From NCBI RefSeq assembly GCF_001294625.1, contig NZ_CP012677.1, positions 1,798,001-1,862,000 of the forward strand: 64,000 bases of DNA, given 5' to 3'. The first letter of the stretch is position 1. Each line of letters opens with the position of its first letter. This stretch comes from Arthrobacter alpinus (GTDB taxonomy: Bacteria; Actinomycetota; Actinomycetes; Actinomycetales; Micrococcaceae). The position numbers were made by a program, and so were the translations under genes. Below the pieces are notes generated by a model. It did no database searches. It was not told where the DNA came from and worked only from the letters and a program-made list of their open reading frames with translations. Shown here one piece after another: positions 4,901 through 63,244 of the stretch.

Positions 4901-5322
4901 GCGCTGGCCTGGGGCGCCGTGACGGGTGCCGTGGCGCGGCGGCGAGGCGCCTTCTTCGCGGGGGCAGCCACGGCAACAACCTCAACGGCGGGCGCGGCCA
5001 CCTCGACGGCGGGGGCCTGGACGGTGGCATCGATGAGGCCGTCGAGCAGGCTCGGCTCCGCCTCAATCTTCTTAGCACGGCTGCGGCGCACGGGCGCCTT
5101 CTTCACAGGGGCCTCGGCGGCAGGCGCAGCTTCGGCCAGTTCTTGCACAGTCGCGGTGACGGCCTCAACGCTAGCGGAGGGGGAGGTGACCTTCGCGGTG
5201 GCCCTGCGGCTGCGCTTGGCCTTCACAGGGGCTTCCGCCGTTGTTGCTTCCACTGATTCTTCATTAACCATTGCGGCATTACTTTCGCGCCATGAAAACA
5301 TCCCCACATCGGATGCCTTCAT
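1948..5322 (-). CDS. rne: Ribonuclease E/G family endoribonuclease
   Basis: The protein is long (1124 aa). Residues about 1-400 are a low-complexity Ala/Pro/Lys/Glu region with repeated AAPAKKAPRRR-like blocks. An S1 RNA-binding domain follows near 495-575 (GNVYLGKVQNVLPSMEAAFVDIG). The catalytic RNase E core comes next, with the metal-binding aspartates in VVDVNTGKF and IIVIDFIDM around residue 755 and beyond. The zinc-link CxxC is CEACAGRG near 860. A His/Arg-rich tail follows. It cleaves single-stranded RNA in mRNA decay and rRNA/tRNA processing. Domain order matches actinobacterial RNase E with its added N-terminal segment. The start is uncertain: MKASD at 5322 lacks a clear ribosome site, and ATG at 5271 (MVNEES) is a good alternative. 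Confidence 0.95.
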   Translation of the reverse strand: MKASDVGMFSWRESNAAMVNEESVEATTAEAPVKAKRSRRATAKVTSPSASVEAVTATVQELAEAAPAAEAPVKKAPVRRSRAKKIEAEPSLLDGLIDATVQAPAVEVAAPAVEVVAVAAPAKKAPRRRATAPVTAPQASAPVASPLASTAAESVAQESVAQEALGELELAAASEVPAAQAPAKAAQAPAKKAAVRRRAVKKTEPATEADSVEAAVVQAPAQLAGEEAVSEAKTTRSRRKPAVKVAPAQAPAETPVETPVEAPAAHAAAPTEEEAAPSATESLFLSPSAGMSALFLAPDLSVVVPATVAAHADGDADVHDATDADESADGRRGRGRNRNRRSSSTASESGDAIANAAHGEDGEDSDDDGVTSRRRRRRRRGEADLELSGGTDEDPPNTVTKVRAPRTPGETSTSSDRVTSLRGSTRLEAKKQRRRDSRDSGRRRTVITEAEFLARRESVDRVMVVRQNDERIQIGVLEDGILAEHFVSKTQQDSLIGNVYLGKVQNVLPSMEAAFVDIGRGRNAVLYAGEVDWDGANLNGQPRRIENALKSGDTVLVQVSKDPVGHKGARLTSQISLPGRYLVFVPGGSMTGISRKLPDVERNRLKRVLKDHLPENAGVIVRTAAEGASEEELTNDINRLRAQWEGINTRATGHKTPAPEMLYGEPDLTIKVVRDVFNEDFTKLIVSGEEAWDTIEAYVTYVAPDLLDRLEKWSKPDDIFAAHRIDEQISKALERKVFLPSGGSLVIDRTEAMTVVDVNTGKFTGTGGNLEETVTKNNLEAAEEVVRQLRLRDIGGIIVIDFIDMVLESNRDLVLRRMVECLGRDRTKHQVAEVTSLGLVQMTRKRMGTGLLEVFGEQCEACAGRGMVTHEIPVEHRRVHTVAAESHQAHVAQQAHVVKSEGRDGERMANRSTRSERKRNRNRSQPGHDGEQDMATEAEQTHVPHVPVVDEAAEAQKAHKATEARAALANIAAAAAAAHHDAEPAPAQPLTASVVDTATLTLAGEAIELPRGHHHDTATDTDHAEQLAELAVALDQLSESHGGAPDQAHADNRQRSRRGRRNRSARSAQGGADMKVETSDGATAGHGPAQHSSAAAVVPTPAVASKKDAAPIIMLGVGVPASEL

Positions 5323-5657
5323 AGCAGATGTGTCAACACCCGCAGGCGCTGACGGAAGTCGTCTGATTTCCCCTTAGGCGGCACCAACTCCTGGGTGCTG
5401 CAAGCTCTAAGAAGCCGCTGGCCCGCCGCATCCGCAGCATTCTGCGTGAAAACCGCCGGTGGATGGCTGCCAAGTGCTGGAGCCTCATCACCGGCAGCCC
5501 CTTGGGCGTGCCATCGGACTGAGCAACGAATGTGGATCGCCGGCCAGCCACCTATATTGTCTCACACACACCTCGCCTCCGCCCCGTTATACGTACGGCG
5601 CGCCAAGTTTCACAAGCTACAATCAGGACACAATAGCCCCGGATAGAAAAGGCCCTC
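5323..5657. promoter_or_regulatory. Divergent promoter region between rne and the VKOR gene
   Basis: No gene is seen. A TACAAT hexamer at 5618-5623 is a plausible -10 box for the rightward VKOR gene. TTGACA at about 5329-5334, read on the minus strand, could be a -35 box for rne if translation starts at 5271. No riboswitch or strong hairpin was recognised. Confidence 0.4.
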
Positions 5658-6287
5658 ATGCCTCTCCCCCGCGTTTCCGCTTCCCTCTCGCAGGAAGCCG
5701 CACTGCCCTCCATGGTGCGGGCACGGCCTTTCGGCTGGTTCCTAATCATCACCGGCGCCATTGGCTGGCTCGCCTCGGCAACACTGGTGCTGGAACGGAT
5801 CCACCTGTACAACAACCCCGATGCCAAGGTCAGCTGCGACTTCAACTCCTGGATCTCCTGCGGTGACGTCATGAAGACCCCCGAGGCTGCCATCCTTGGT
5901 TTCCCCAACCCGTTCATTGGCGTCGCCGCGTTCGTCATCCTCATCACCACCGGCGTGGTTTTGCTGGCCGGGGCCACACTCAGCCGCTGGTACTGGGTTT
6001 CCCTGCAGGTCGGCATCACCGCCGGATTCGCTTTGGTTTGCTGGTTCTGGTTCACGGCCGTGTACACACTCGCCATCTTGTGCCCTTACTGCATGATCGT
6101 CTGGGCCGTGATGATTCCGCTGTTGGTCTGGATCACGCTCCGCAACCTCCAACATGGGGTCTTCCGTGCTCCCGCTGCCCTGACCAAGTTCCTCACTGAC
6201 TGGGCCTGGATCATCGTCGGCCTGATCTACGTCGCAGTCATCGCTTCAATCTTCTTCAAGTTCATGTACGCCATCTTCGGCGCCTAA
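5658..6287 (+). CDS. Vitamin K epoxide reductase (VKOR) family membrane protein
   Basis: This is a 209-aa integral membrane protein with about five hydrophobic segments. It has the VKOR hallmarks: a loop cysteine pair C60 and C68 (SCDFNSWISC) and the active-site motif CPYC at 142-145 near the membrane face. Bacterial VKOR homologues use quinones to reoxidise a DsbA-like partner and so drive disulfide formation in exported proteins. The gene stands alone between the divergent rne and convergent ndk, so the partner thiol oxidase is not adjacent. A strong terminator follows the stop. Confidence 0.92.
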   Translation: MPLPRVSASLSQEAALPSMVRARPFGWFLIITGAIGWLASATLVLERIHLYNNPDAKVSCDFNSWISCGDVMKTPEAAILGFPNPFIGVAAFVILITTGVVLLAGATLSRWYWVSLQVGITAGFALVCWFWFTAVYTLAILCPYCMIVWAVMIPLLVWITLRNLQHGVFRAPAALTKFLTDWAWIIVGLIYVAVIASIFFKFMYAIFGA

Positions 6288-6303
6288 ACCATGGGCCGAC
6301 GCG

Positions 6304-6341
6304 CGAAAGGGCACCTCCTGATGGAGGTGCCCTTTCGTTTT
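6304..6341 (+). terminator. Terminator after the VKOR gene
   Basis: A perfect 15-bp stem with a TGAT loop (6304-6318 with 6323-6337) is followed by TTTT. It lies between the convergent VKOR and ndk genes. The T-run serves the plus strand. Confidence 0.9.
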
Positions 6342-6354
6342 ACTTCAGTTTGGC

Positions 6355-6771
6355 TTAGCCGAACCAGATGCCGATCTCGCGTTCAGCGGAGAGCACCGAG
6401 TCGGAGCCGTGTACCAGGTTTTGCTGGACCTTCAGGCCCCAGTCGCGACCGAAGTCACCGCGGATCGTGCCGGGAGCGGCGACTGTTGGGTCTGTTGCGC
6501 CAGCCAAGGAGCGGAAGCCCGCAATGACGCTGTTGCCTTCAAAGATTGCCGCAACAACCGGGCCGGAGAGCATGAACTCAACCAGCGGTTCGTAGAAGGG
6601 TTTGCCAACGTGCTCCTCATAGTGCTGCTCGAGCACTTCACGGGTCGCATTGACCATTTCCAGCTGGGCCAGCGTGTAACCCTTCGCTTCGATGCGGGCC
6701 AGGATGGCACCGGAGAGGTTGCGGGTGACGCCGTCGGGCTTGATCAGGACAAGGGTGCGCTCAATGCTCAC
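6355..6771 (-). CDS. ndk: Nucleoside diphosphate kinase
   Basis: The 138-aa protein has the full NDK fold and usual length. It shows [11 protein letters not shown] at 11-21 and the phospho-acceptor H121 in [17 protein letters not shown]. It transfers the gamma phosphate from NTPs to NDPs through phosphohistidine and balances nucleotide pools in the cytoplasm. It lies downstream of DUF4233 and folC, a layout common in actinobacteria. Confidence 0.97.
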
Positions 6772-6820
6772 AGAAACTCCACTTCTTCGTTTAAATTGTT
6801 TTCATGACCATTCTACGGGT

Positions 6821-7252
6821 TTACACTTGCGCATCGGGGTGAGCGGCGTCCCAGTGCGCTTGTTGGCGGGCCCGCTCACGGTTGTCCCGGTCAATACGGG
6901 AACCTGCATGCAGGGCGTACCACCAGGAGACACCAAACAGGATGCCCACAACGAACATAGACGGTTCCCAGAAGCCGCCAGCAAGTAGCAGCAGCTGCAA
7001 AACCCAACCGAACCCCGCACCCCACTTCTTGCCCATGAAGGCGCACGCGGCAACGAACAACACCGCCATGATGCCCGCCACTACTAGGTAGGCGGGGTTC
7101 TTCCCGTTCAGGCCGAACAGGGCCAAGCCTAAGAACAACGCCACAAAGGCCTCAAGCAGAAGCACCGTGGAGGCGAACATGGTCTTGGTGGAGCGCAGCT
7201 TCTTGGGCATGCCTGGGCGCCATTCGCGTTGCGCCTTAGTCAGTTTCGCCAT
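6821..7252 (-). CDS. DUF4233 domain-containing membrane protein
   Basis: This small protein (143 aa) has a charged N-terminus followed by four hydrophobic segments (about residues 25-48, 53-72, 75-95 and 98-115) and a hydrophilic C-terminus. I recognise it as the DUF4233 family found beside folC in many actinobacteria. Its start lies only a few bases after the folC stop, so co-transcription and translational coupling are likely. The molecular function is unknown. The constant link to folC suggests a folate-related or housekeeping role, which is inference. Confidence 0.85.
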   Translation of the reverse strand: MAKLTKAQREWRPGMPKKLRSTKTMFASTVLLLEAFVALFLGLALFGLNGKNPAYLVVAGIMAVLFVAACAFMGKKWGAGFGWVLQLLLLAGGFWEPSMFVVGILFGVSWWYALHAGSRIDRDNRERARQQAHWDAAHPDAQV

Positions 7253-7255
7253 GTC

Positions 7256-8638
7256 CTAGGCCTCTTCCTTCTCGCCGGGACGGCCCAACAGGATCCGGGC
7301 CTCCCCCACAACGGTGATGGAGCCGGTGATCAGCACGCCGCCGGCCAAATCGTTGTTGGCCTCGGCGCGTTCCACCGCCCATTCGATGGCGTCGTCAAGT
7401 TTCAGTGCAATGTGGACGTCGTCCTCGTCCCAGCCCAAGTCCAGGGCCATTTCGGCCAGCTCGTCGGCAGGGATGGCACGTGGCGAGTTGGATTGCGTTA
7501 GGCAAATTTCCGCAGCCTCATCCCCGTACGCTTCCTTGAGGGAACGCAGGATCCCCTCAGCGTCCTTGTCTGCCAGGACGCCCAGCACCACCACAAGCTT
7601 GCTGAAGGCGAACGATTCCTGCAGGGCAACTGCGGTGACGGCGATGCCGGCCGGGTTGTGGGCGGCATCCACCACAATGGTAGGCGAGGTGCGCAGCACT
7701 TCCATCCGGCCAGGTGAGCTGGCATTGCCGAAACCTTCCTGGACTAGATCCAGGTTCAGTTCCTTCTCGCCGCCGCCAAGGAATGCTTCCAGGGCGGCAA
7801 GGGCGACGGCGGCGTTTTCTGCCTGGTGTTCCCCGTGCAGTGGAAGCAGGATATCCGGGTAGCGACCGGCCAGCCCCTGCAGGGTGATCATTTGCCCGCC
7901 CACGGCGATGGTGCGTGATTCCACCCCGAACTCCACGCCCTCAAACCGGAATTGGGCGTGCATTTCGCGGGCCTTGTCCAAAATGACTTGGGCTGCGTCT
8001 GCTGGCTGTGCCGAACTGATCAGGAACGCGCCTTCCTTGATGATGCCTGCCTTTTCACGGGCGATCTGACCTGTCGTGTCACCTAAGAGCTCCACATGGT
8101 CCAAGGAGATGGGGGTGATGACGGCCACCTGGCCGTCGCCCACATTGGTGGCGTCGGTAATCCCGCCCAGGCCCACCTCCAGAACCGCCACGTCAACCGG
8201 CTCGTCGGCAAAGATGGCGTACGCCAGGATCGTCAGGGCCTCAAAGTAGGTCAGGCGCACCTCGTTGGCGGCCTCCAGTTCCGTGTCCACAATCTGCAGA
8301 TAGGGGCGAATCTCGTCCCAAATCCTCACAAACGTGGCGTCGTCCACGGGCGCGCCGTCAATGCTAATGCGCTCGGTCACCTTGCTCAGGTGCGGGCTTG
8401 TGTACCGGCCCGTGCGTAGCCCGTGGGCGAGCAGGCCGGACTCGATCATCCGGGCTGTGGAAGTTTTTCCGTTGGTGCCGGTGATGTGGATGATGGGGAA
8501 GGCCTTGTTCGGCTCACCCAGGATGTCCATGGCACGGAACAGTGGGGCAAGACGGGGTTCCATCTTGTTTTCGGGAGCACGGCCCAGCAGTTCCGCATAC
8601 ACGCTCTCGACTGAAAATTCGTCGTGGTCGGTAGTCAT
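7256..8638 (-). CDS. folC: Bifunctional dihydrofolate / folylpolyglutamate synthase
   Basis: The 460-aa protein belongs to the Mur ligase superfamily. It carries the ATP-binding loop HITGTNGKTSTARMI (P-loop residues 54-60), the conserved ILEVGLGG-type segment (VAVLEVGLGGITDATN) and the C-terminal DAAHNPAG motif. It adds glutamate to dihydropteroate and then lengthens the folate tail. The start codon abuts the ileS stop codon, so ileS and folC are probably co-translated. Further down the same strand come DUF4233 and ndk. Confidence 0.96.
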   Translation of the reverse strand: MTTDHDEFSVESVYAELLGRAPENKMEPRLAPLFRAMDILGEPNKAFPIIHITGTNGKTSTARMIESGLLAHGLRTGRYTSPHLSKVTERISIDGAPVDDATFVRIWDEIRPYLQIVDTELEAANEVRLTYFEALTILAYAIFADEPVDVAVLEVGLGGITDATNVGDGQVAVITPISLDHVELLGDTTGQIAREKAGIIKEGAFLISSAQPADAAQVILDKAREMHAQFRFEGVEFGVESRTIAVGGQMITLQGLAGRYPDILLPLHGEHQAENAAVALAALEAFLGGGEKELNLDLVQEGFGNASSPGRMEVLRTSPTIVVDAAHNPAGIAVTAVALQESFAFSKLVVVLGVLADKDAEGILRSLKEAYGDEAAEICLTQSNSPRAIPADELAEMALDLGWDEDDVHIALKLDDAIEWAVERAEANNDLAGGVLITGSITVVGEARILLGRPGEKEEA

Positions 8639-11600
8639 TTAAGCGATCGTCCGTTCAACAGTGATGGTGGTTTCAACGTCACCAGGGATAAGTTCAAGCT
8701 TAAGCGTCAAGGTCTCCTTTTTGACCAGCTCGGCGTTGGCGTGCAGGGCATCCACAACATCCTGCGGTGCGCTGATGATGGTGCGGATGCGGTCGCTGAC
8801 ATTGAGCCCGGCGTCCTTGCGGGCCTGCTGGATGGCGCGCACCATGTCACGGGCGGCGCCTTCGGCCTCAAGTTCGGGTGTCAGCTCGGTGTCCAACACC
8901 ACGAAGCCGCCGTGCGGCAGCATGGCGACGGCACTCTGCCCGCCGTCGGACGCCTCGGTCACCATGGTCTCCAGCGTGTACTCGGAGGGTTCCAGGGCTA
9001 GGCCTCCGGCGGTGACGACGCCGTCGGTGATGGACCAGTCGCCGCTCTTGGAGCCCTTGATGGCCAGCTGGACGTTCTTGCCCAAGCGCGGGCCGGCCGC
9101 CCGTGCGTTGACCACCAGCTTGGAGGTGATGCCAAATTCTTCCGGGGAGGCGTCAGAGGCATCGACGAAGCGGACGGTGCGGATGTTCAGTTCCTCCGCG
9201 ACGATCGCGGCACCGTCGTTCAGCAGTGCCGCGTTCGGGGCCACCACCGTCAACTCCTGCAGGGGCAGGCGGACGCGCAGCTTCGCGGCCTTGCGCAGGC
9301 TGGAACCGGTGGAACAGATCTGCTGGATCTTATCCATCTGCTCCACGAGGGCGGCATTGGAGACGAAAAGCTCGGCGTTGGGCCAGTCGGTCAGGTGCAC
9401 GGAGCGCCCACCGGTGAGCCCGCGCCAGATTTCTTCGGTGACCAGCGGCAGCAGCGGGGCGGCAACCCGGCACACGGTTTCCAACGCCGTGTAGAGCGCG
9501 TCGAAGGCGTCGGCGTTCTCATCGAAGAAGCGGCCACGGCTGCGGCGCACGTACCAGTTGGTGAGCATGTCCAGGTAGTTGCGCAGGGAATCGCAGGCCC
9601 CCGAGACGTCGTAGTCATCTAGTTTGGCGGTCAGCTCCCGCACCAGGTCGCCGGTGTTGGCTAGCAGGTATTGGTCCATGGTGTCGGTGTAGCCGTCAAA
9701 CCGCAGTTTCGCGTCGTAGCCTTGGCCGTTGTTAGCGGTGTTCGCGTACAGGGTGAAGAAGCTGTAGACGTTCCACAGGGGCAAGATGACCTGGCGGACG
9801 CCGTCGCGGATGCCTTGTTCGGTGACCACCAGGTTGCCGCCGCGCAGGATGGGGCTGGACATCAGGAACCAGCGCATGGCGTCGGAGCCGTCGCGGTCCA
9901 GGACCTCGGAGACGTCCGGGTAGTTGCGCAGCGACTTAGACATCTTCTGCCCATCCGAGCCGAGCACGATGCCGTGGCTGATCACGTTCCTGAACGCCGG
10001 GCGGTCAAAGAGGGCCGTGGAGAGGATATGCAGCATGTAGAACCAGCCGCGAGTCTGCCCGATGTATTCGACGATGAAGTCGGCCGGGTTGTGGGTGTCG
10101 AACCAGTCCTGATTCTCGAACGGGTAGTGCACCTGGGCGTAGGGCATGGAGCCGGAATCGAACCAGACGTCCAGGACGTCCTCAACTCGGCGCATGGTGG
10201 ACTTGCCTGTGGGGTCATCCGGGTTGGGCCGGGTCAGCGCGTCGATGAACGGACGGTGTAGGTCCACCTCACCGTCGTTGTTCACCGGCAGGCGGCCAAA
10301 GTCGGCCGCCATCTCTGCGAGGGAGCCGTACACGTCGGTGCGCGGGTACTCGGGGTCATCGGACTGCCACACGGGGATGGGGCTGCCCCAGTAGCGGTTG
10401 CGGGAGATGGACCAGTCGCGGGCGTTGGCCAGCCACTTGCCGAACTGGCCGTCCTTAACGTTGCCGGGGATCCAGTTGATGTCCTGGTTCAGCTCCACCA
10501 TGCGGTCCTTAAACGCGGTGACTTCCACGTACCAGGAGGAGACGGCCCGGTAGATCAGGGGTGTGCGGCAGCGCCAGCAGTGCGGGTAGCTGTGCACATA
10601 GCTGGCCTGGCGGACCAGGCGCCCGGCGTCCTTCAAGACGCGTGTGATGCTCTTGTTGGCGTCGAAGACCTGCACGCCTGCGATCTCGCTCAGCGGCCCT
10701 TGCGCAAACAGGGGTAGGAAGTTCGCACCCTCATCGACCGAGAGAACCACGGGGATGCCGTACTGCTCGCAGACCTTCTGATCCTCTTCACCGTAGGCGG
10801 GGGCCTGGTGAACGATTCCGGTACCGTCGGTGGTGGTCACGTAGTCGGCGAGCAGGAACTGCCAGGACTTGGCCGTACCGTACTTTTCGTCATCGGCAAA
10901 GTAGTCCCACAGCGGCTCGTATTTCAGGCCCTCAAGTTCGGCACCCACGTAGCTGGCGGTGACCGCGGAGGTCGCGGCAGCAGCGTCGTCGTACCCCAGA
11001 TCCTTGGCGTACGCGCCCACCAGGTCCGCGGCCAGCAGAAATTTTCCGGCGCCAGCTGTCGTTCCGTGGGGTCCCACCGGCACGACGGCGTAGCTCACCT
11101 GCGGCCCCACGGCGAGGGCCTGGTTGGTGGGCAGGGTCCAGGGCGTGGTGGTCCAGGCGATGGCGGCAACCCCGGCCAGTTCCTGCGAGAGTGCGGATTC
11201 GCCGGCCAGGATGGGGAAGGTGACAGTGACGGTCTGGTCTTGGCGGTCCTTGTAGACGTCCTCGTCCATGCGCAGCTCGTGGTTGGAAAGCGGCGTCTCA
11301 TCCTTCCAGCAGTACGGCAGCACTCGGTAGCCGTTGTAGGTCAAGCCCTTGGTATGGAGCTGCTTGAACGCCCACAGCACGGACTCCATGTACTCGACGT
11401 TGAGTGTCTTGTAATCGTGTTTGAAGTCGACCCAGCGGGCCTGGCGAGTGACGTATTCCTGCCATTCGCCGGCGTATTTCATGACGGAGGCACGGCAGGC
11501 GTCGTTGAACTTGTCGATGCCCATGGCCTCGATCTGGGCCTTGTCGGTCATGCCCAGCTGCTTCATCGCCTCCAACTCGGCGGGAAGCCCGTGCGTGTCC

Positions 11601-39706: not shown

Positions 39707-39779
39707 GCCTCGGTAGCTCAGCGGATAGAGCAGGAGCCTTCTAATCTCTTGGCCGCCGGTTCGAGTCCGGCCCGGGGCA
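39707..39779 (+). tRNA. tRNA-Arg (TCT)
   Basis: A cloverleaf with acceptor GCCTCGG/CCGGGGC (one T-G pair), D arm GCTC...GAGC, anticodon loop CTTCTAA with anticodon TCT, and T arm GCCGG-TTCGAGT-CCGGC. CCA is not encoded. The accessory region begins right after it. Confidence 0.94.
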
Positions 39780-39783
39780 CAAC

Positions 39784-39822
39784 GGGCCTCTGACCTGCGG
39801 TTATACCTCGCAGGTCAGGCCC
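39784..39822 (+). terminator. Hairpin after tRNA-Arg
   Basis: TGACCTGCG/CGCAGGTCA (39791-39799 with 39809-39817) extended by GGGCC/GGCCC around a 2-nt bulge, then ATTT. It is a likely terminator of the tRNA transcript. Confidence 0.75.
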
Positions 39823-40230
39823 ATTTGGGACCAACTCCCCTTTTACTCCCCCAATTCGTCAAAATTTTCTTCAAATTCCACTCCCCCTTTTCAAAATGAC
39901 CAGCTCCCCTTTTTCGCTCCAAGACAGGCATTTGCGGCGTCATCCCAGACGATTGCCGGGCCGCTCAGGCGGTCGAAGTACGTATTCGGCTCCGCTGCCG
40001 CTGGCCGGTGGACGAGACGTGTCGTTGCCCTGAACAGCTGAGACTCTAGGGTGTTGCAGTTAGGGCACGTTCACCGGGCATTAAGTCGGGCGGGGTAATC
40101 GCGAATCTGACGCCCCTGGAAACACGTAGTTTGGAAAGAATTCCGAAGTTGCCTGCACACGCTCCGGTGGTGGACCCGGTTACGGGACCGCTCAGTTCGC
40201 GGTCGGGCGTGAAATGCTCGTCGATATGGG
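39823..40230. other. Intergenic stretch with a possible gene remnant (39891-40070, minus)
   Basis: The first 70 bases are rich in C and T runs (CTCCCCTTTT twice). On the minus strand an open frame of 59 codons without a start codon ends at 39891. It reads like coding sequence (LFRATTRLVHRPAAAEPN, then DRLSGPAIVWDDAANACL) but matches no family I know. It may be the tail of a gene cut off when the neighbouring DNA was inserted. No integrase is seen. Confidence 0.35.
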
Positions 40231-56600: not shown

Positions 56601-56889
56601 TGGGCACCCTGGCCAGTGGGCTGGAAGATGCCCGATCGTCTCCCGCCCCGCACCATCAATGCTGCAGCCCACACTCTCTGCCTACCACCAGGATGCACCG
56701 GTTCGACGTAGGACAACTCTGGACTCAGCAAACTCAGCAGTTGTGCAAACCGCCAGTCGAAACGGAGCGTTCGCAAGCGGTTCCCCTGTGGAACGCGACT
56801 GCAATAGCCACCACGACGGTGCTGACTTGGTTTCGATGCCCCAGGTGGCGACCGGTTTACTGGATACAGCCTATGGAAGACTGAGCGTC
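56601..56889. other. Intergenic stretch before the TPR gene, with one GGTTCCC motif
   Basis: No gene is seen. A copy of the dispersed motif (CGCAAGCGGTTCCCCT, core at 56779-56785) lies about 105 nt before the TPR gene start. It is nearly identical to the copy at 62451-62463. Confidence 0.5.
56779..56785 (+). repeat. Dispersed GGTTCCC motif, copy 1
   Basis: The context is CGCAAGCGGTTCCCCTGTGG. It marks the left edge of the run of single-gene units and precedes the TPR gene. Confidence 0.6.
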
Positions 56890-57402
56890 ATGACTTTAGA
56901 CGATGAACTTGACCGGATCTTTACCGCCAGAGACCGGAACAACATGCAGCCGACCATAGATGCAATGCTCCTTCTCTACGCATCCAATCCCGATAATGCA
57001 CGCGTGCTATACGAGGTGGGAGGAGCGTACGACACCAGCGGCCAGGAAGAAGTAGCGCGGGGATTCTATGAACGTGCTCTCGCTTCTGGGCTGGAAGGCG
57101 ACCTGCTCCGCCGTTGCTATGTCCAGTACGGTTCAACGTTGAGGAACGTGGGCGAATACAAGAAGTCACTCGACGTCTTCGCAACCGCTCGCAACACATT
57201 TCCAGAATCACCGGCTCTGGGTGCTTTTGAAGCAATTACCCTCCACGCCGCAGGCCAACCGGACGCGGCCGTTGCAGAATTGCTAGACCTGCTGGTGGAC
57301 TTCGTTCGCACACCAGACATCGACAGGTACAAACCAGCGATCAGCGGGAACGCAGCACATATCCGTTCACTGGAAAGAAACGGATCAGACGTCTCTGCCT
57401 AA
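56890..57402 (+). CDS. Tetratricopeptide repeat protein
   Basis: The 170-aa soluble protein begins MTLDDELDRIFTARDRNN and is made of helical pairs with TPR spacing: ARVLYEVGGAYDTSGQEEVA, then GFYERALASGLEGDLLRRCY, then TLRNVGEYKKSLDVFATARN and ALGAFEAITLHAAGQPDAA. Similar small proteins occur across Gram-positives as tetratrico peptide repeat (Tetratrico_5-like) domains. Function is unknown; TPR folds bind other proteins. GGAAG lies 10 nt before the ATG. A GGTTCCC motif follows the stop by 11 nt. Confidence 0.8.
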   Translation: MTLDDELDRIFTARDRNNMQPTIDAMLLLYASNPDNARVLYEVGGAYDTSGQEEVARGFYERALASGLEGDLLRRCYVQYGSTLRNVGEYKKSLDVFATARNTFPESPALGAFEAITLHAAGQPDAAVAELLDLLVDFVRTPDIDRYKPAISGNAAHIRSLERNGSDVSA

Positions 57403-57412
57403 TCCCGCAGAG

Positions 57413-57419
57413 GGTTCCC
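57413..57419 (+). repeat. Dispersed GGTTCCC motif, copy 2
   Basis: The context is CCCGCAGAGGGTTCCCGACT. It lies 11 nt after the stop of the TPR gene and before the GNAT gene that ends at 57472. Confidence 0.6.
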
Positions 57420-57471
57420 GACTGGGACGGTCCGTTCTATTCAAAACTCTAGGTGACCTCGGAGCTCGTGG

Positions 57472-58038
57472 TCAGTCGCGTAAGGCAGCGTAGACCGCAT
57501 CCGATATCCACTCGCCCTTTTGGTAACTGCAGTCTCGATGTACACCTTCGAGCTGCATACCGAGTCGTTCACAAATGGCTGCAGAGGCACTGTTCCGGAG
57601 ATCTAGCCGTGCCTCCAATCGACGGAACCCTAGCTCAGCGAATGCCATATTGAGAACCATCCGGGCTGCCTCGGTGGCGAACCCGGCGCCCTGCGCTTTT
57701 GGCGCGAGGGACCAGCCCAGTTCACCAACCCGCTGAGGGCCAGATTCAGCCGTCTCTGGCTTACCGCCAGCCCCCCATTTAAGGGAAATCTTGCCAATGA
57801 GACCGGCCATATCGCGACGTTCAACAGCGAAGCTCGCCCAATCGCCCTCCTGCTGGAAGGTCGAATCGATGTATATTTGCACCCGCCCAAGGCACTCCTG
57901 ATAACTGCGAGGTTCACCGAACAAGTACCTAGCCGTTTCAGGAAGCTGCTGATACGCGAAGTAATCATCAATGTCTCTCGTTTCAAACCGGCGAAGAACC
58001 AGCCGTTCTGAGACCAATGGATAGGGAACTTGCAACAT
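57472..58038 (-). CDS. GNAT family N-acetyltransferase (RimJ/RimL-like)
   Basis: The 188-aa protein has the acetyl-CoA fold of the RimJ/RimL group: SERLVLRRFETRDIDDYFAY at the start, the core GELGWSLAPKAQGAGFATEA (motif A with the Q/GxGxA-like loop), and the C-terminal NSASAAICERLGMQLEGVHR. It probably acetylates an amino group on a small molecule or protein; the substrate is unknown. TATAGC lies 8 nt before ATG 58038 and no ribosome site is seen, so the mRNA may be leaderless. Confidence 0.9.
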   Translation of the reverse strand: MLQVPYPLVSERLVLRRFETRDIDDYFAYQQLPETARYLFGEPRSYQECLGRVQIYIDSTFQQEGDWASFAVERRDMAGLIGKISLKWGAGGKPETAESGPQRVGELGWSLAPKAQGAGFATEAARMVLNMAFAELGFRRLEARLDLRNSASAAICERLGMQLEGVHRDCSYQKGEWISDAVYAALRD

Positions 58039-58322
58039 GGGCTAAGGCTATAGAACTCCGCCAATTCTGCAAAAAAGCCAGCGCACATCATCCTCCTGGA
58101 ACTCGGAGGTCTAGAGAGGCGGACCCCACCGTGCCGGGCAACAGGGACTTCTCAAAATCCAAATCCATCACACAAGGCGGAAACAAAAGACTAGGCAGGA
58201 CGACTGTCACAGACGACTCGCAACGGACTTCAAACCTGACCCCACTGCCTCACAGAGGGTTCCCGCTACGGGCGCGGCTCTGACACTTGTGCAGCCGGCT
58301 TCTGACCCTTCTATGCTTCGAG
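58039..58322. other. Intergenic stretch between GNAT gene and IS110 remnant
   Basis: No gene is seen. It holds the GNAT promoter at its left end and one GGTTCCC motif copy at 58258-58264. That copy has no gene before it on the plus strand, so a unit may have been lost or replaced by the IS110 insertion. Confidence 0.45.
58258..58264 (+). repeat. Dispersed GGTTCCC motif, copy 3
   Basis: The context is CACAGAGGGTTCCCGCTACGGG. It lies 59 nt before the right-hand end of the IS110 remnant's coding part. Confidence 0.6.
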
Positions 58323-59372
58323 TCAAGCCATAAGCGTTTGTAATTTCCTGAATAGTTCTCGGGCAATAGATCGCTTGAGGCACCGACGGATCTCTCTGAG
58401 GGTCTTACCTTCAGCGGTGCGCCTTTGAACGTATTCCTTCGTTGCGGCGTCGAACTGCATGCGCGTCCGGGCGATCGTGTGCAGTGCCTTGTTCAGTTGC
58501 CGATCGCCTTGGCGATTGAGGCGGTGCCGGATGGTGTTGCCCGAAGAGGCTGGGATGGGGTTGACTCCGGCGATGGCCGCGAAGGCTGCCTCGGAATGAA
58601 TCCTTCCGTGGTGGGAGTAGGCGACGAGCACGACGGCTGAACTGACCGGGCCCAGCCCCGGCAGGTCCATCAAGCCCGGCGCCATGTCCTGGACGATGTC
58701 AGATATGTGGGTCCTGTTGGTTTCCAGCTCGGTGGTAAAGGCAAGGACTGCTCTGGCCAACCGGCGTGCTTCCTCCCGCGCGACCTTGTCGGCCCTTATC
58801 GTCCCGGGACCGTGTCCGCCATGCAGCGATGGCACGGATTTGGGCATCTGTTAGTGCCTGGCGGCCATCAACACCCAGCGCGGTAGTGCGGATAATCGCT
58901 GTCAGTGCTAGCCGGTCAGCTGTGCGTTGGCATCCATGAGCCGTCGGGCATCCAGCAGGATCCGCAGGGCGTTCCTCTCACCGTCGGCGCGGGGCTCGAG
59001 CAGGGAAGCGACCTCGATGCCAAGGACGGACTGCGCTGCTGCCACTGCATCAATGGCATCGGACTTTCCCCGCCCCCTCCGGGAGGTCCTGCGTGGGGGC
59101 CGCACATCACAGACGCTCATCCCGGCCCCACGGAGCGCCCGTGTCAGGCCGGCACCGTAGGAGCTCGCACCCTCCACGGAAACCAGGAGCTGCCCTTCCC
59201 CGGCACGTCTGTTCATCCAGTCGGCGGTACGGGCGATACCTGGCGGGCTGGTCGGAAACGTTGCGGTGTCTTGGACTTGTCCGGTCGCCGAGGAAAGAAT
59301 GGCGTAGGTGTGGGTTTTGGCATGGGTGTCCACGCCTACGACATGGGTGAATTGGTTGGCCACGATGGTCAT
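58323..59372 (-). pseudogene. Frameshifted IS110-family transposase
   Basis: The N-terminal DEDD domain starts at ATG 59372 (MTIVANQFTHVVGVDTHAKT) and runs to RRLMDANAQLTG, where the frame hits a stop near 58905. Homology resumes one frame over (LTAIIRTTALGVDGRQALTD) and shifts again near 58795 into ADKVAREEARRLARAVL. The C-terminal Tnp_20 domain (LPGLGPVSSAVVLVAYSHHG, IAGVNPIPASSGNTIRHRLN) is intact to the stop at 58323. Two frameshifts make it inactive unless they are sequencing errors. IS110 elements lack clear terminal repeats, so the ends were not set. Confidence 0.88.
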
Positions 59373-59678
59373 CTCTGGCTCTCCCTTCGAGAGGGTATTG
59401 TTCATAACGCCGATCCGGGAAGAGTCACGCCGAGGCAGTTCTCTAACGAGTCACGGCCCCAACCTTTTGAAAGGGGAGGACAACCTTCTATGAAGCCATC
59501 GAAGTGGGCCAGAAAGGTGCAGCCCCGACCAGGCGGACAAGTCAGAAGTAGGACACTGCCGTGGCAGGTCAGAAAATGAGCGAGTCACACCTGGCCGGAG
59601 TAGCACCAGTCTGCCAGCCAGCCCCGGGCCAGCCAATATCCATTAGAGAAAATGACACCGGGCCAAGACAGCATGAAT

Positions 59679-60197
59679 TTAGTGCGTGTTGATCCAGTAG
59701 CGGCGCTTACCGTTACGGCTGTCTTCATAGAGTCCACTATTCTTTTCGATAGTGGCCCGGGAACCGGCATTGTCCTCATCGCAGGTGACGAGAACCCGGG
59801 AAATCCCCAGCTCGCGGGCAACAGGCAACGCGTCATTCAACGCCTTGGAGGCGTGACCGCGTCGGCGCGCGGATGGCCGCACACTATATCCAATGTGCCC
59901 GCCTTCATTCAGCCCGAAATCATTGAGTTCGTGGCGGATGGCAAGAGAACCAAGGACCACATCCCCCTCAACGATCCACAGATAGGTGCACTTCACATAA
60001 CCAGGCTTCCGTGGGCTTTCCGGTAGCGCAGCAGCAACAAGTTCGTCAACAAACCGGCCAAAGTCCAGCGGATCCCGGAGGTCTTCCAATGACCAATCCT
60101 CCCCTCCGCCACCATCCCTGTGGGCTCCACCAAATTCAACGGCAGCTTCTAGCCAGGAGGATTGAAAAAATACATTGGGGGTCAAGAGGGTAGCCAT
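59679..60197 (-). CDS. GNAT family N-acetyltransferase
   Basis: The protein (172 aa from ATG 60197) has the GNAT core: TYLWIVEGDVVLGSLAIRHE, then GHIGYSVRPSARRRGHASKA (acetyl-CoA loop RRRGHA), and ISRVLVTCDEDNAGSRATIE. It resembles acetyltransferases that modify small amines; the substrate is unknown. TAGGAT (60204-60209 complement) ends 6 nt before the ATG, so a leaderless start is likely and the TTG one codon earlier is not needed. It is divergent from the NUDIX gene. Confidence 0.9.
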   Translation of the reverse strand: MATLLTPNVFFQSSWLEAAVEFGGAHRDGGGGEDWSLEDLRDPLDFGRFVDELVAAALPESPRKPGYVKCTYLWIVEGDVVLGSLAIRHELNDFGLNEGGHIGYSVRPSARRRGHASKALNDALPVARELGISRVLVTCDEDNAGSRATIEKNSGLYEDSRNGKRRYWINTH

Positions 60198-60321
60198 CAA
60201 AAGATCCTAGCCTGCTACTTTGCTCTTTCTGACACCGCTCAGGAGCGTCCCGTTCGAGGGCCCGAAAGCCTTCGCCTTCCAGATGCCGTCCCTCTCGCTC
60301 GCCCACCGGTGGACTCGCCCG

Positions 60322-60333
60322 TAAAATCGACCC
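60322..60333 (+). promoter_or_regulatory. -10 box for leaderless NUDIX gene
   Basis: TAAAAT (60322-60327) ends 6 nt before ATG 60334. There is no ribosome site in between, so transcription probably starts at the initiation codon. Confidence 0.5.
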
Positions 60334-60735
60334 ATGGATGAATCCTTGGTGCATCAGGTTTCGTGCGGAATGCTTATCTGCGCGGGGCGGGTGCTTCTTG
60401 TACACCGGTCGTCGTCGAAGGCACGATATCCGAATGTTTGGGACTTCCCGGGAGGTCACCTTGAACGGGGCGAAAATAGTCGTCAAGCGCTTGTGCGGGA
60501 GCTTCGAGAAGAGTTGGGCGTAGAAATCACTCCGCCGACTGGGCACCCGCTGCTGACCCGCCGGGACGCTGAGATATTCCAAGAAATATGGAAGGTTGAA
60601 GCATGGGAAGGTGCGATCATCAATGCTGCACCCGATGAACACGACGCCATCGGATGGTTCAGGTTGGACGAGGCAATGTCCTTAGACCTAGCCGATGACG
60701 GCTACCCAGCACTCTTCAATCAGGTGCTGCCCTGA
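60334..60735 (+). CDS. NUDIX hydrolase
   Basis: The 133-aa protein has a complete Nudix box at 41-63 (GGHLERGENSRQALVRELRE followed by ELGV), matching Gx5Ex7REUxEExGU. It should cleave a nucleoside diphosphate linked to another group. The N-terminal strand region CGMLICAGRVLLVHRSSS and the aromatic NVWDFPGG are standard for MutT-like members. A GGTTCCC motif follows the stop by 15 nt. Confidence 0.92.
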   Translation: MDESLVHQVSCGMLICAGRVLLVHRSSSKARYPNVWDFPGGHLERGENSRQALVRELREELGVEITPPTGHPLLTRRDAEIFQEIWKVEAWEGAIINAAPDEHDAIGWFRLDEAMSLDLADDGYPALFNQVLP

Positions 60736-60750
60736 TTTCTGACCGGAACA

Positions 60751-60757
60751 GGTTCCC
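60751..60757 (+). repeat. Dispersed GGTTCCC motif, copy 4
   Basis: The context is CGGAACAGGTTCCCCTGGGG. GGAAC/GTTCC can also form a short hairpin here. It lies 15 nt after the NUDIX stop. Confidence 0.6.
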
Positions 60758-60889
60758 CTGGGGCACATTGTCAATACCACCGACGGCTGCGGACATGAAT
60801 TCTGTTAATCGCATGGTTCATGCGTGAACGATAGAATTTGCGGCCCCTACTTGGTAGCGTGACCGTAGCCATCGCTACTAGGGGGATAA

Positions 60890-61694
60890 TTGGGCAACTT
60901 CGAAACATCGGTTTTTGCGTCAGGATCGTGGAAGACCGAAGAAGGAACGGACTGGCGACTGCGAATTTCTGTTCACGATAGTGACTTTGCCACCTTGGAC
61001 TACAGGCCCGTTCCCGGCTCATCCGGTCGATTCTATTTAGGATTCCAACCCCGCGACTACTTTTGAGGACCCGGCAGCGAGTGCCCCTGTCGATCTGCAG
61101 GCAGAATAGTCCGGCTTTTCCCAATGGGCGTCAGCCGTCCTCGGTACCGATATCGCTGCAACAGAGTTGCTTGCCCTCATGGCACCAGAGGGCGTTGAAG
61201 ACCCCATAGACGTTGTTGTAGAGGACACTTTGATTCGACTGCTCAATCTACTCGGCATGCCTATGCCCACGTGGTTGGCACCCGAGGGTCCGTTCGTAGA
61301 GACAGCACTGGCTGCGCAGGAACCTGGACGGGACTGGGCGGAAATAGCTCGGGAAATAGCTGGCAGCCTCGAGGAAATGACTAGTCTCGAGTACTTACTG
61401 GTTATCTACGACATCGGGCTTAGTGAATACTCTGTCTACGGTCAGTTCGCCATCAACGAGGGCAACTTTCAATGCGAGGTCGTCTCCGAGCAGTTCGTGC
61501 CAGCCGACGTTTGGCCAATTAATGACGGCTGCCTTCGCCACAGCGGTTGGTCTGCGCCAGAAAATGGAAATCCCAACTGGTCTATGCGGCAAGACAAACC
61601 CGAGCAAGCTGCCGATTCTGTGCTGACCGCCATGCGATCCGGCCTCGGATGCACCGACCCACAATTGATCAGTCTTACCGTAGGCCGTTTCTAG
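60890..61694 (+). pseudogene. Decayed gene of unknown function
   Basis: Coding sequence starts at TTG 60890 after AGGGGG (MGNFETSVFASGSWKTEEGT) and reads well to GFQPRDYF. One extra T in TTTT at 61061-61064 then brings a TGA. In the corrected frame it continues EDPAASAPVDLQAE to an in-frame TAG at 61107-61109, and then reads on without break through SQWASAVLGTDIAATELLAL, EDPIDVVVEDTLIRLLNLLG and QFAINEGNFQCEVVSEQ to 61694. The rejoined protein would be about 267 aa, soluble and acidic. I do not recognise a family. A functional shorter product from TTG 61167 is possible. Confidence 0.65.
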
Positions 61695-61703
61695 TCCGTA
61701 GAA

Positions 61704-61710
61704 GGTTCCC
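61704..61710 (+). repeat. Dispersed GGTTCCC motif, copy 5
   Basis: The context is CCGTAGAAGGTTCCCACTACGG: CCGTAG/CTACGG arms form a 6-bp stem with the motif in the loop. It lies 10 nt after the stop of the decayed gene. Confidence 0.65.
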
Positions 61711-61766
61711 ACTACGGTCTGCGGGATTGCTCGGCGGCGATGACTCCGGCGGCTAGTGTGGGAATC

Positions 61767-62405
61767 ATGAGCGAGTACCGGCGACCCACAGCCTCCATGG
61801 AGGTTTACCATGATCAAGAGGGCCTTTCGATCGAATACGGCAGTCGCTGGGAAGGGGCGTCTCCGCCTGAAGATAGTTACTCCCGGGTCAGCAATCCGAC
61901 GCGCTTCGCACCTCTGCACACCGTCGCCAACGCATTGATCGAATGGTTGCACGAAACCTTCGACGTGGTTGTCGAGCCAGACCCGGGGGCGGCTGCTGAC
62001 CTTCTACTCCTGCCAAATGAAGTTGTCCAGGCCGTGAGGATAACACCACGAAACCCAGCATCGGCCCCGCTGACTTTCGTCCTGACGCCGTTCCCGGGCG
62101 TGTACCTTCATGCCGGCTCACTCCACGACTTTCACTTCCCCGTATGCGGCTGCGATGCCTGTGATGACAATGTCGCGAATCTGGTCCAAGAGCTCGAATG
62201 GACCGTTCGAACTGTCGTATCGGGGGGATATTCCGAGCGCTTAGATGCATGGCCGGCCCGCTGTGTCGAATACCGACTTGAAGAGCCGGGCGTCGGCATG
62301 AGCTCCGGGCGCCGCGGCACCGAGGAACTGCCCGCCGAACGGGTGAAGTTGGCACGAACTGTACTACCCGCTGATGGCCAGTGGCTCCCCTGGCAAGAGC
62401 TTTAG
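61767..62405 (+). CDS. DUF6226 family protein
   Basis: The protein (212 aa from ATG 61767) begins MSEYRRPTASMEVYHDQEG and contains RFAPLHTVANALIEWL and the Cys/His-rich HDFHFPVCGCDACDDNV. I recognise this as the DUF6226 family found in Arthrobacter and relatives; function is unknown. The CGCDACD segment with nearby His suggests a metal site. TAGTGT ends 7 nt before the ATG, so the transcript is probably leaderless. A GGTTCCC motif follows 51 nt after the stop. Confidence 0.8.
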   Translation: MSEYRRPTASMEVYHDQEGLSIEYGSRWEGASPPEDSYSRVSNPTRFAPLHTVANALIEWLHETFDVVVEPDPGAAADLLLLPNEVVQAVRITPRNPASAPLTFVLTPFPGVYLHAGSLHDFHFPVCGCDACDDNVANLVQELEWTVRTVVSGGYSERLDAWPARCVEYRLEEPGVGMSSGRRGTEELPAERVKLARTVLPADGQWLPWQEL

Positions 62406-62455
62406 CAGGTCAACAATGATGGCGACGGCAGAGCGCCGAAAGACGTCCCGCAAGA

Positions 62456-62462
62456 GGTTCCC
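62456..62462 (+). repeat. Dispersed GGTTCCC motif, copy 6
   Basis: The context is CGCAAGAGGTTCCCCTTTCGG, 14 of 16 bases identical to copy 1 around the core. CCGAAAG/CTTTCGG arms (62436-62442 with 62462-62468) place the motif in a hairpin loop. Confidence 0.65.
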
Positions 62463-62493
62463 CTTTCGGTATGCCGTTGCAGTTTGGTGCGCG

Positions 62494-62521
62494 TTGATTC
62501 GCCACTATGACCCCATACACT
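62494..62521 (+). promoter_or_regulatory. Promoter for leaderless methyltransferase gene
   Basis: TTGATT (62494-62499) and TACACT (62516-62521) are spaced 16 nt, and the -10 box ends 6 nt before ATG 62528. The whole promoter lies between motif copy 6 and the gene. Confidence 0.55.
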
Positions 62522-62527
62522 CGTTGC

Positions 62528-63127
62528 ATGACCGATATGCAAGTTTCCCAGTCGTATTCCGCCCGAGCGGCGGAGTACACCTCCATCCTTGGGTCAATCG
62601 ATGACATGCGTCCACTGGACAAGACCCGCATCGAGCGGTGGAGCGAACAAATTACCGGCAGCGCACTCGATGCCGGTTGTGGTCCTGGCCATTGGACGGA
62701 CCATCTTCACAAACGAGGAATCGAAATTTCAGGGATCGACCTCGTTCCTGAATTCATAGAGAGTGCCCGAAACCGCTTCCCTGAGGTCCCTTTTCGTGTG
62801 GCTTCACTGCGCGCTCTCGATGTAGCGGACAGCAGCCTAGGCGGAGTCCTGGCGTGGTATTCGCTGATTCATCTGGCGCCTGCAGAGTTACCTCAAATTC
62901 TCGCCGAGCTCGCGCGCGCCCTCAAATCAAACGGTCACCTGCTGATCGGTTTTTTCGACGGCGCATCCGCTGAGCCACTCAACCATGTGGTCACCACGGC
63001 TTATCACTGGTCGGTAGACGAGATGAGCCGCTTGCTGCATGACGCAGGGTTCGATGTGCTGGAGATTGAGACCCGCCAGGATCCGGGCAGTCGACCGCAC
63101 GCAGCAGTTTCCGCGATCGCCCGGTAG
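62528..63127 (+). CDS. Class I SAM-dependent methyltransferase
   Basis: The protein (199 aa) has the methyltransferase fold: motif I SALDAGCGPGHW at 46-56, the acidic residue after strand 2 in ISGIDLVPEF, and motif III-like LAWYSLIHLAP. It binds S-adenosylmethionine; the acceptor is unknown. Start is at ATG 62528 next to its promoter. A degenerate GTTCC(TTCTACGG) copy of the dispersed motif begins 2 nt after the stop. Confidence 0.9.
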   Translation: MTDMQVSQSYSARAAEYTSILGSIDDMRPLDKTRIERWSEQITGSALDAGCGPGHWTDHLHKRGIEISGIDLVPEFIESARNRFPEVPFRVASLRALDVADSSLGGVLAWYSLIHLAPAELPQILAELARALKSNGHLLIGFFDGASAEPLNHVVTTAYHWSVDEMSRLLHDAGFDVLEIETRQDPGSRPHAAVSAIAR

Positions 63128-63244
63128 CCGTTCCTTCTACGGGGCACCTTCCCCCCGTTACCCGTACAGAATAAACATTCCGTCCGGAACCTCAGTAGAT
63201 TCTCGCAACCGGTTTGCTGAGAATACACTCACGGACCACGGCGA

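What the first reader, a model, noticed from the sequence alone, without database searches (positions are those of the whole stretch)
56779..63134. Dispersed GGTTCCC element separates a row of single-gene units (cassette-like array)
Six copies of GGTTCCC, all on the plus strand and all between genes, lie in 6.4 kb (cores at 56779, 57413, 58258, 60751, 61704, 62456), plus a decayed one at 63130. By base composition, less than one is expected in that length; the few others I noticed in the first 56 kb lie inside genes. Similarity extends beyond the core (CGCAAGxGGTTCCCCT; CAGAGGGTTCCCG; CCGTAG...CTACGG). Copies follow the TPR, NUDIX, decayed and DUF6226 genes by 10-51 nt. Units are unrelated small genes (GNAT, NUDIX, DUF6226, methyltransferase). 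This looks like a gene array built by repeated insertion at, or carrying, a short shared site, reminiscent of integron cassettes but with no attC structure or integrase that I can identify.
Basis: partly seen in the sequence, partly recalled or inferred. Interest (0 to 1): 0.72.

Follow-up and report, generated by a model that had tools for sequence, protein, structure and literature searches.

The report
Gene cassettes moved by serine recombinase
In Arthrobacter-like bacteria, small unrelated genes sit in rows like beads, each ended by the same short DNA site, and comparison of genomes shows the beads changing places at that site; the likely mover is a small serine recombinase, which would make this an integron-like gene-collecting system built on a different enzyme.

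Summary
The row of small-gene units is real and the units are mobile. The GGTTCCC core is the centre of a polar ~30-bp palindrome, GTCCCGYAGnnGG-TT-CCnCTTRCGGGAC. Relatives of four window units (83-98% identical, in other species and in the same genome) end at the central TT or within 12 bp of it. Of 264 sites compared, 26 pairs share only the right-hand unit and 55 only the left; similarity changes at the central two bases. Sites face one way: 178 of 181 in 26 loci. A two-base overlap and arms without covariation point to a serine recombinase. A small serine recombinase fits: 60 of 107 distinct genes examined carry such a site 110-170 bp upstream on the opposite strand, with arrays lying beyond it, as in integrons. 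One contig has recombinase, attI-like site and 13 same-strand sites in ~20 kb. The window's genome has a full-length recombinase 1.9 Mb away. No tyrosine integrase lies at the arrays checked and the site is not attC-like, so it is not an integron. That the enzyme acts on these sites is inferred, not assayed. Ten paper searches found no description of it.

The parts
56765..56798 (+).
   Evidence: Profile score -8.7; related TPR unit in another genome starts further right
56846..56870 (+). Probable decayed left boundary of the TPR unit (CCGGTTTACTGG), by eye
   Evidence: Comparison with the TPR unit in L291, whose left site is intact (1837, score 18.1); homology starts just right of it
56890..57402 (+). 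TPR-protein gene of unit 1
   Evidence: PF12688 3.2e-17 for 56881-57402; 91% identical in G007 with right end at the site
57399..57432 (+). Recombination site, central TT 57415-57416
   Evidence: Profile 10.0; homology of the next unit begins exactly at TT in L164
57472..58038 (-). GNAT acetyltransferase gene, inverted relative to the sites
   Evidence: PF13302 2.2e-28; stretch 57415-58272 98% identical in G018
58244..58277 (+). Recombination site, central TT 58260-58261
   Evidence: Profile 24.1, in the training set; right flank differs in L164, left flank differs in L062
58303..59650 (-). IS110-family element inside the GNAT+NUDIX unit; transposase frame interrupted (3 stops)
   Evidence: PF02371 and PF01548 on separate frames; 99.3% copy at L061:18568-19916; absent from the related unit in L062
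59679..60200 (-). GNAT gene of the two-gene unit
   Evidence: PF00583 2e-10
60334..60735 (+). NUDIX gene of the two-gene unit
   Evidence: PF00293 3.8e-22; 59648-60753 is 98% identical at 1610247-1611352 of the same genome
60737..60770 (+). Diverged recombination site, central TT 60753-60754
   Evidence: Profile -5.4 but homology switches here in L062, L163 and L168
61167..61694 (+). Remnant of a TY-Chap3 protein gene
   Evidence: PF22552 1.1e-15; stretch 60752-61710 98% in G007, 83% in G001
61690..61723 (+). Recombination site, central TT 61706-61707; CCGTAG/CTACGG arms
   Evidence: Profile 23.5, in the training set; right half differs in L163 and L168, left flank differs in L166
61740..62405 (+). 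DUF6226 gene
   Evidence: PF19736 1e-67; stretch 61702-62452 94% in G238
62442..62475 (+). Recombination site, central TT 62458-62459
   Evidence: Profile 26.5, in the training set; homology in L166 ends 6 bp before TT and the right flank differs
62507..63127 (+). Methyltransferase gene
   Evidence: PF13649 4.5e-19
63115..63148 (+). Weak recombination site, central TT 63131-63132
   Evidence: Profile 8.1; no comparison tests it
40158..40191 (+). Isolated site of the second class, central AC 40174-40175
   Evidence: Profile 18.2 with centre masked; a 93.5% block in L076 ends at 40192

Best explanation
The row is an array of mobile gene cassettes. Each cassette is one gene or a few, delimited by a ~30-bp core site of a small serine recombinase: two inverted arms (GTCCCGYAG and CTTRCGGGAC) round a polar central dinucleotide, TT or AC. 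Exchange between two sites with the same dinucleotide swaps everything on one side, so a unit can leave as a circle with one site and enter at another matching site; polarity keeps the sites in one direction. The enzyme is most likely a ~195-aa resolvase/invertase-family protein whose gene often carries an attI-like site (core plus an accessory repeat about 72 bp nearer the gene) ~121-140 bp upstream, with cassettes stacked on the far side, divergent from the recombinase. The window holds an orphan array; a full-length recombinase lies elsewhere in the same genome. Shown by sequence: units, site, polarity, exchange at the central two bases, association of recombinase and site, variation beginning at the attI-like site. 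Inferred: that this enzyme does the work, the circular intermediate, the matching rule, capture of outside genes, and any benefit.
For: Window units recur with ends at TT or within 12 bp. Junction census: 26 right-shared pairs are identical at both central bases and 27% identical 3 and 4 bases to the left, random pairs 36% and 46%. Block ends: 42 of 332 fall on sites in both copies, null mean 0.06, maximum 1. Direction: 178 of 181 sites in 26 loci. Arms show no covariation. Site 110-170 bp upstream on the opposite strand: 20 of 31 recombinase genes from the family's genomes and 42 of 80 from named records, together 60 of 107 distinct; any site on the same strand 0 and 1; control stretch beyond the gene 0 and 7. 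In the 80 named loci 50 of 51 TT sites on the upstream side lie on the strand opposite to the gene (33 of the 50 are the upstream site itself, my count). Complete example: L272 recombinase 3541-4107, AC site 3410, then 13 TT sites, all minus strand. Shared recombinase-plus-site homology ends within 25 bp of a scored site in 7 of 8 locus pairs, in both copies in 4. The own-genome copy aligns with Gin-type invertase and gamma-delta resolvase with the YxRVST and KLDRL-R motifs kept (that these hold the catalytic Ser and Arg is recalled).
Against: No activity was measured. Upstream sites of the family's recombinases are AC in 19 of 20 while most array sites are TT (112 TT and 10 AA against 23 AC and 23 GT of 197), so one enzyme must use both or a second one is involved. 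11 of 31 and 38 of 80 recombinase genes lack a scored site in the 110-170 bp band. Arrays occur in genomes without it: G016 has no PF00239 match, G010 and G013 none at E <= 1e-60. 290 of 332 shared-block ends are not at scored sites in both copies; I did not classify them. 30 of 165 sites fall inside crude ORF calls, and only 53 of 100 units hold a single called gene. In L062 the unit's right neighbour has TG, not TT, at the junction. Relatives of the recombinase also sit on a widespread actinobacterial element and on many plasmids, so the gene need not be dedicated to cassettes.
Confidence: 0.82

Rival explanations
1. The same cassette array, but moved by a tyrosine recombinase (XerC/XerD as in dif modules, or an unknown integrase).
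For: A 28-30 bp site with inverted arms has dif-like geometry (recalled); PF00589 proteins are in all 11 genomes searched; dif modules are a known gene-module system (search listing and starts of abstracts).
Against: No PF00589 match lies in the array stretches of G018, G019, G007, G016 or G010 (places against the stretches). Partners differ one or two bases from the central TT (GGTTCC, CGTTCG, GGTTGG), leaving no 6-8 bp identical overlap. The site recurs beside serine recombinase genes.
Confidence: 0.07
2. Real serine recombinase sites, but a by-product: plasmid and transposon resolvase (res) sites recombine now and then during plasmid integration and decay, leaving genes between sites; there is no gene-capture function.
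For: Related recombinases occur on 492 of 72,556 plasmid records at 1e-50 and on a near-identical element in several actinobacterial genera; the upstream site with accessory repeat resembles res.
Against: Units are short (110 intervals, median 1019 bp) in uniform direction, with 11-16 sites per 20 kb in the densest stretches (L271, L286, L278), and the same unit recurs between different neighbours in several species.
Confidence: 0.15
3. The motif is a dispersed repeat (REP or MITE-like, or a terminator) inserted beside genes; the mosaic comes from homologous recombination.
For: Palindromic, intergenic, 10-51 nt after stop codons in the window.
Against: Half-sites reassort and exchange sits on two bases; homologous recombination between 30-bp repeats would not give this precision or uniform polarity.
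Confidence: 0.03

Closest known systems
Integrons (IntI, attI, attC)
   Same: Array of small cassettes with sites in one direction, recombinase gene at one end and divergent from it, an attI-like site beside it, orphan arrays without a recombinase, GNAT-rich content.
   Different: Serine instead of tyrosine recombinase; ~30-bp sites whose arms do not covary, not folded attC; exchange on a 2-bp overlap in the middle of the site. [quoted passage not shown]
dif (pdif) modules of Acinetobacter plasmids and chromosomes, XerC/XerD
   Same: Genes packaged between short inverted-arm sites and shuffled by site-specific recombination.
   Different: Recombinase family (Xer there) and site sequence differ; uniform polarity and an attI-like site beside a recombinase gene here. 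Known to me from the listing and starts of abstracts only (PMC13141974, PMC6449649, PMC12907356).
Small serine recombinases: gamma-delta and Tn3 resolvase, Gin-type invertase
   Same: Protein family, motifs and size; site beside own gene with an accessory repeat; 2-bp crossover (recalled for the family, seen by sequence).
   Different: Not known to me, from recall, to build gene-cassette arrays; used for cointegrate resolution or inversion.

Membership tests
Integron | IntI tyrosine recombinase at the array | tested here: not met
   PF00589 search of 11 genomes: no match in the array stretches of G018, G019, G007, G016, G010
Integron | attC sites, folded imperfect palindrome with RYYYAAC and GTTRRRY boxes (boxes recalled) | tested here: not met
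   Core reads GTTCC or GTTCG, not GTTRRRY; arms paired 66.2% observed against 66.2% shuffled in 47 sites that had been chosen for paired arms
Integron | Recombinase gene divergent from a one-direction cassette array, insertion site between | tested here: met
   not every array has a recombinase
Small serine recombinase (resolvase/invertase) | Resolvase domain with catalytic Ser and Arg motifs and C-terminal HTH | tested here: met
   PF00239; alignment to Gin-type invertase and gamma-delta resolvase to residue 185-188; residue roles recalled
Small serine recombinase (resolvase/invertase) | Exchange with 2-bp overlap at the centre of inverted arms | tested here: met
   Junction census by sequence; no biochemical test
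Small serine recombinase (resolvase/invertase) | This protein recombines these sites | not testable with these tools
   Association only
Tn3-type res | Crossover site plus accessory sites next to the resolvase gene | tested here: inconclusive
   Crossover site and one accessory repeat about 72 bp away are visible in about 15 of 20 aligned loci, by eye; binding untested, neighbouring transposase genes not surveyed
dif/pdif modules | XerC and XerD binding arms and 6-bp centre | tested here: inconclusive
   Centre tolerates differences one or two bases from the middle; the host's own dif was not located

The most novel reading that the evidence does not exclude
A second, independent invention of the integron: a serine-recombinase gene-capture platform with its own attI, two central-dinucleotide compatibility classes (TT and AC) and arrays in Arthrobacter-like bacteria and Cryobacterium, in a phylum where tyrosine integrons are essentially missing.
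Probability: 0.6. Interest if true: 0.94.

Novelty: new variant of a known kind. Interest (0 to 1): 0.87.

Why it matters
Integrons are the textbook gene-capture platform, and their near absence from Actinobacteria is noted as unexplained (passages seen, PMC9024848). A non-homologous system with the same layout would show that the design evolved twice, would suggest where many GNAT, kinase, transporter and DUF genes in these genomes come from, and would give a simple double-stranded cassette tool. The central-dinucleotide rule makes directly testable predictions.

Tried and rejected
Tyrosine recombinase at the arrays: searched and not found in the array stretches compared. IS110 as the driver: its ends (58303, 59650) are not at sites and the related unit lacks it. 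Hairpin or attC reading: no covariation. An automatic profile for AC sites collapsed onto reversed TT sites because the site is nearly palindromic, so its 516 hits were discarded; the first profile had mixed both classes in the same way and was replaced by one from 47 aligned sites. I first read the AC sites as inverted TT sites and corrected this after aligning the recombinase upstream regions. The order-wide pattern count is near its control except for a few genomes; arrays were then confirmed in two genomes of another family (L292-L294). Two window units have no match on plasmids; DUF6226 has one, 67.9% identical, on a Cryobacterium plasmid. Ten paper searches listed no paper that, by title and start of abstract, describes a serine-recombinase cassette array; the library holds open-licence papers only and no preprints. 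Co-variation of recombinase DNA-binding residues with site arms, and correlation of recombinase presence with site number across genomes, were not done.
Full report
OBSERVATION. The six GGTTCCC copies and the decayed seventh are at the stated places, all on the plus strand and all between genes. The window as a whole has no excess (14 matches, shuffles 12.85, sd 3.07), so the signal is the cluster. The genes are a TPR protein, GNAT (inverted), an interrupted IS110 transposase, GNAT (inverted), NUDIX, a TY-Chap3 remnant, DUF6226 and a methyltransferase.

THE SITE. A pattern search of 23 genus genomes found further copies, several in clusters on one strand. An alignment of 47 sites gives GTCCCGYAGnnGG-TT-CCnCTTRCGGGAC with G-TT-C invariant; these 47 were chosen from my first scan for a GTT centre and paired arms, so the invariance is partly by choice. 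Three of the 47 are window sites. The profile is well separated from chance: at score 12 there are 173 hits in 40 loci and 5 in the reversed sequences. With the two central bases masked, the centre is TT or AA in 122 of 197 sites, AC or GT in 46, other in 29. In the 26 stretches with four or more sites, 178 of 181 sites lie on the majority strand; neighbouring stretches of one array count separately.

UNITS ARE MOBILE. A search of 295 family genomes with the window array returned single units with ends at the motif: GNAT unit 57415-58272, 98% in G018; remnant unit 60752-61710, 98% in G007 and 83% in G001; DUF6226 unit 61702-62452, 94% in G238. In L164 and L168 homology begins exactly at TT, with ggg against ccc just before it; right ends lie 3 to 12 bp past TT, or 6 bp before it in G238. 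A partial DUF6226 match in G229 (79%) includes the left site, but its right end stops at 62409. The GNAT+NUDIX unit has a 98% relative elsewhere in the same genome, without the IS110, with a different left half-site (by eye) and ending at the diverged site 60753, where the other copy reads TG instead of TT. The TPR unit (91%, G007) ends at 57415 but starts near 56856, so the copy at 56779 is probably not a boundary.

CROSSOVER. Among 264 sites, 26 pairs share only the right side, 55 only the left and 5 both. In right-shared pairs identity is 1.00 at both central bases and 0.27 three and four bases to the left (random pairs 0.36 and 0.46); in left-shared pairs it is 1.00 at the centre and falls to the right, though less sharply. 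Many pairs share lineages, so they are not independent events. Shared-block ends coincide with sites in both copies in 42 of 332 cases against 0.06 expected; the other 290 I did not classify. The arms show no covariation (66.2% paired, shuffles 66.2%; 47 sites, so power is limited). A two-base overlap and independent half-sites fit a serine recombinase acting on double-stranded DNA, not a folded attC and not a 6-8 bp overlap.

THE RECOMBINASE. No PF00589 match lies in the array stretches of G018, G019, G007, G016 or G010. Small serine recombinases lie beside arrays in several genomes, of more than one subfamily. One subfamily, found at E <= 1e-60 in 100 of 295 family genomes, has a conserved upstream region containing the same site with centre AC and an accessory repeat about 72 bp nearer the gene, visible in about 15 of 20 aligned loci (by eye). 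Of 118 matches in hand, 7 were dropped for a late start or too little upstream sequence. On the strand opposite to the gene and 110-170 bp upstream, a site is present in 20 of 31 genes from family genomes (19 AC, 1 TT) and 42 of 80 from named actinobacterial records (32 TT, 10 AC); four genes occur twice, leaving 60 of 107 distinct. Sites on the same strand: 0 and 1. Control stretch beyond the gene: 0 and 7. In the named loci 50 of 51 TT sites on the upstream side lie on the strand opposite to the gene (33 of the 50 are the upstream site itself, my count); on the other side 12 lie on that strand and 4 on the gene's. The own-genome copy at 3.793 Mb aligns with Gin-type invertase and gamma-delta resolvase to residue 185-188, with the catalytic motifs kept (residue roles recalled).

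COMPLETE EXAMPLE AND INSERTION POINT. In G001 the recombinase (L272:3541-4107, +) is followed on its upstream side by the AC site (3410, -) and 13 TT sites, all on the minus strand, over about 20 kb; a second stretch of the same contig has 14 sites, all on the minus strand. Eight pairs of recombinase loci were compared. The shared segment ends within 25 bp of a scored site in both copies for L078/L155, L152/L153, L143/L157 and L141/L142; in one copy only for L150/L151 (where the site is TT), L147/L077 and L143/L144, the other copy having no scored site there; L146/L149 ends 57 bp short. In L078/L155 about 3.6 kb in one species and 0.6 kb in the other lie between the attI-like AC site and the next AC site, after which homology resumes.

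CONTENT. In 110 intervals between neighbouring sites the median length is 1019 bp; of the 100 with an ORF call, 53 have one gene and 32 two; 63 main genes run with the sites and 37 against (crude ORF calls). Of 100 proteins scanned, 15 match PF00583 (GNAT) and 4 match MFS; others include kinases, hydrolases and DUFs; few match defence models.

DISTRIBUTION. Exact matches to GTCCCGYAGNNSGTTC total 98 in 23 genus genomes against 19 for the reversed pattern (my sums). In 396 order genomes the looser pattern is near control except for a few genomes; arrays were confirmed in two genomes of another family (L292, L293, L294) and appear in Cryobacterium ruanii (L265, eight TT sites on one strand).

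WHAT IS NOT SHOWN. No recombination was observed. The AC class at the family's recombinases and the TT class in most arrays must be reconciled: one enzyme recognising the arms and matching centres, or two enzymes. Some arrays stand in genomes without the recombinase: G016 has no PF00239 match, and G010 and G013 have none at E <= 1e-60. Relatives of the recombinase also serve other elements.

VERDICT. It works like an integron but is not one: two defining integron features were tested and not met. I rate it a new variant of a known kind (gene-cassette platforms), with a non-homologous enzyme and site.

Noticed in passing
L207:8699-11388 and matching stretches in L210, L215, L221, L229, L230, L234: A ~2.7-kb segment with a related serine recombinase and, in most of these loci, a TT site upstream is 98.8-99.6% identical to L207 in records named Microbacterium (MAG), Demequina (MAG), Brachybacterium, Microcella, Cellulomonas and Kytococcus (L207 itself is Brevibacterium): a recently spread mobile element.
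   Followed up: partly
window 39745-40192: Isolated AC-class site (40174) with a 93.5% identical block in G006 (L076) that ends at the site: a second, small cassette remnant in the window.
   Followed up: partly
window 58303-59650 and L061:18568-19916: Two near-identical (99.3%) IS110-family copies about 23 kb apart; the window copy's transposase frame is interrupted.
   Followed up: no
L072, L078, L155 and others, 20-65 bp right of AC sites: Units that start at an AC site share a further stretch resembling TCTATACGG...CCCCTTACGG, seen by eye; possibly another recombinase-binding repeat or a promoter.
   Followed up: no
L278 (G213), 2964-9682: TT and AC sites occur five times in pairs 27 bp apart in one array.
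   Followed up: no
L061:9112-9729: Apparently truncated serine recombinase gene next to a TT site (8919), beyond the window's right end.
   Followed up: no
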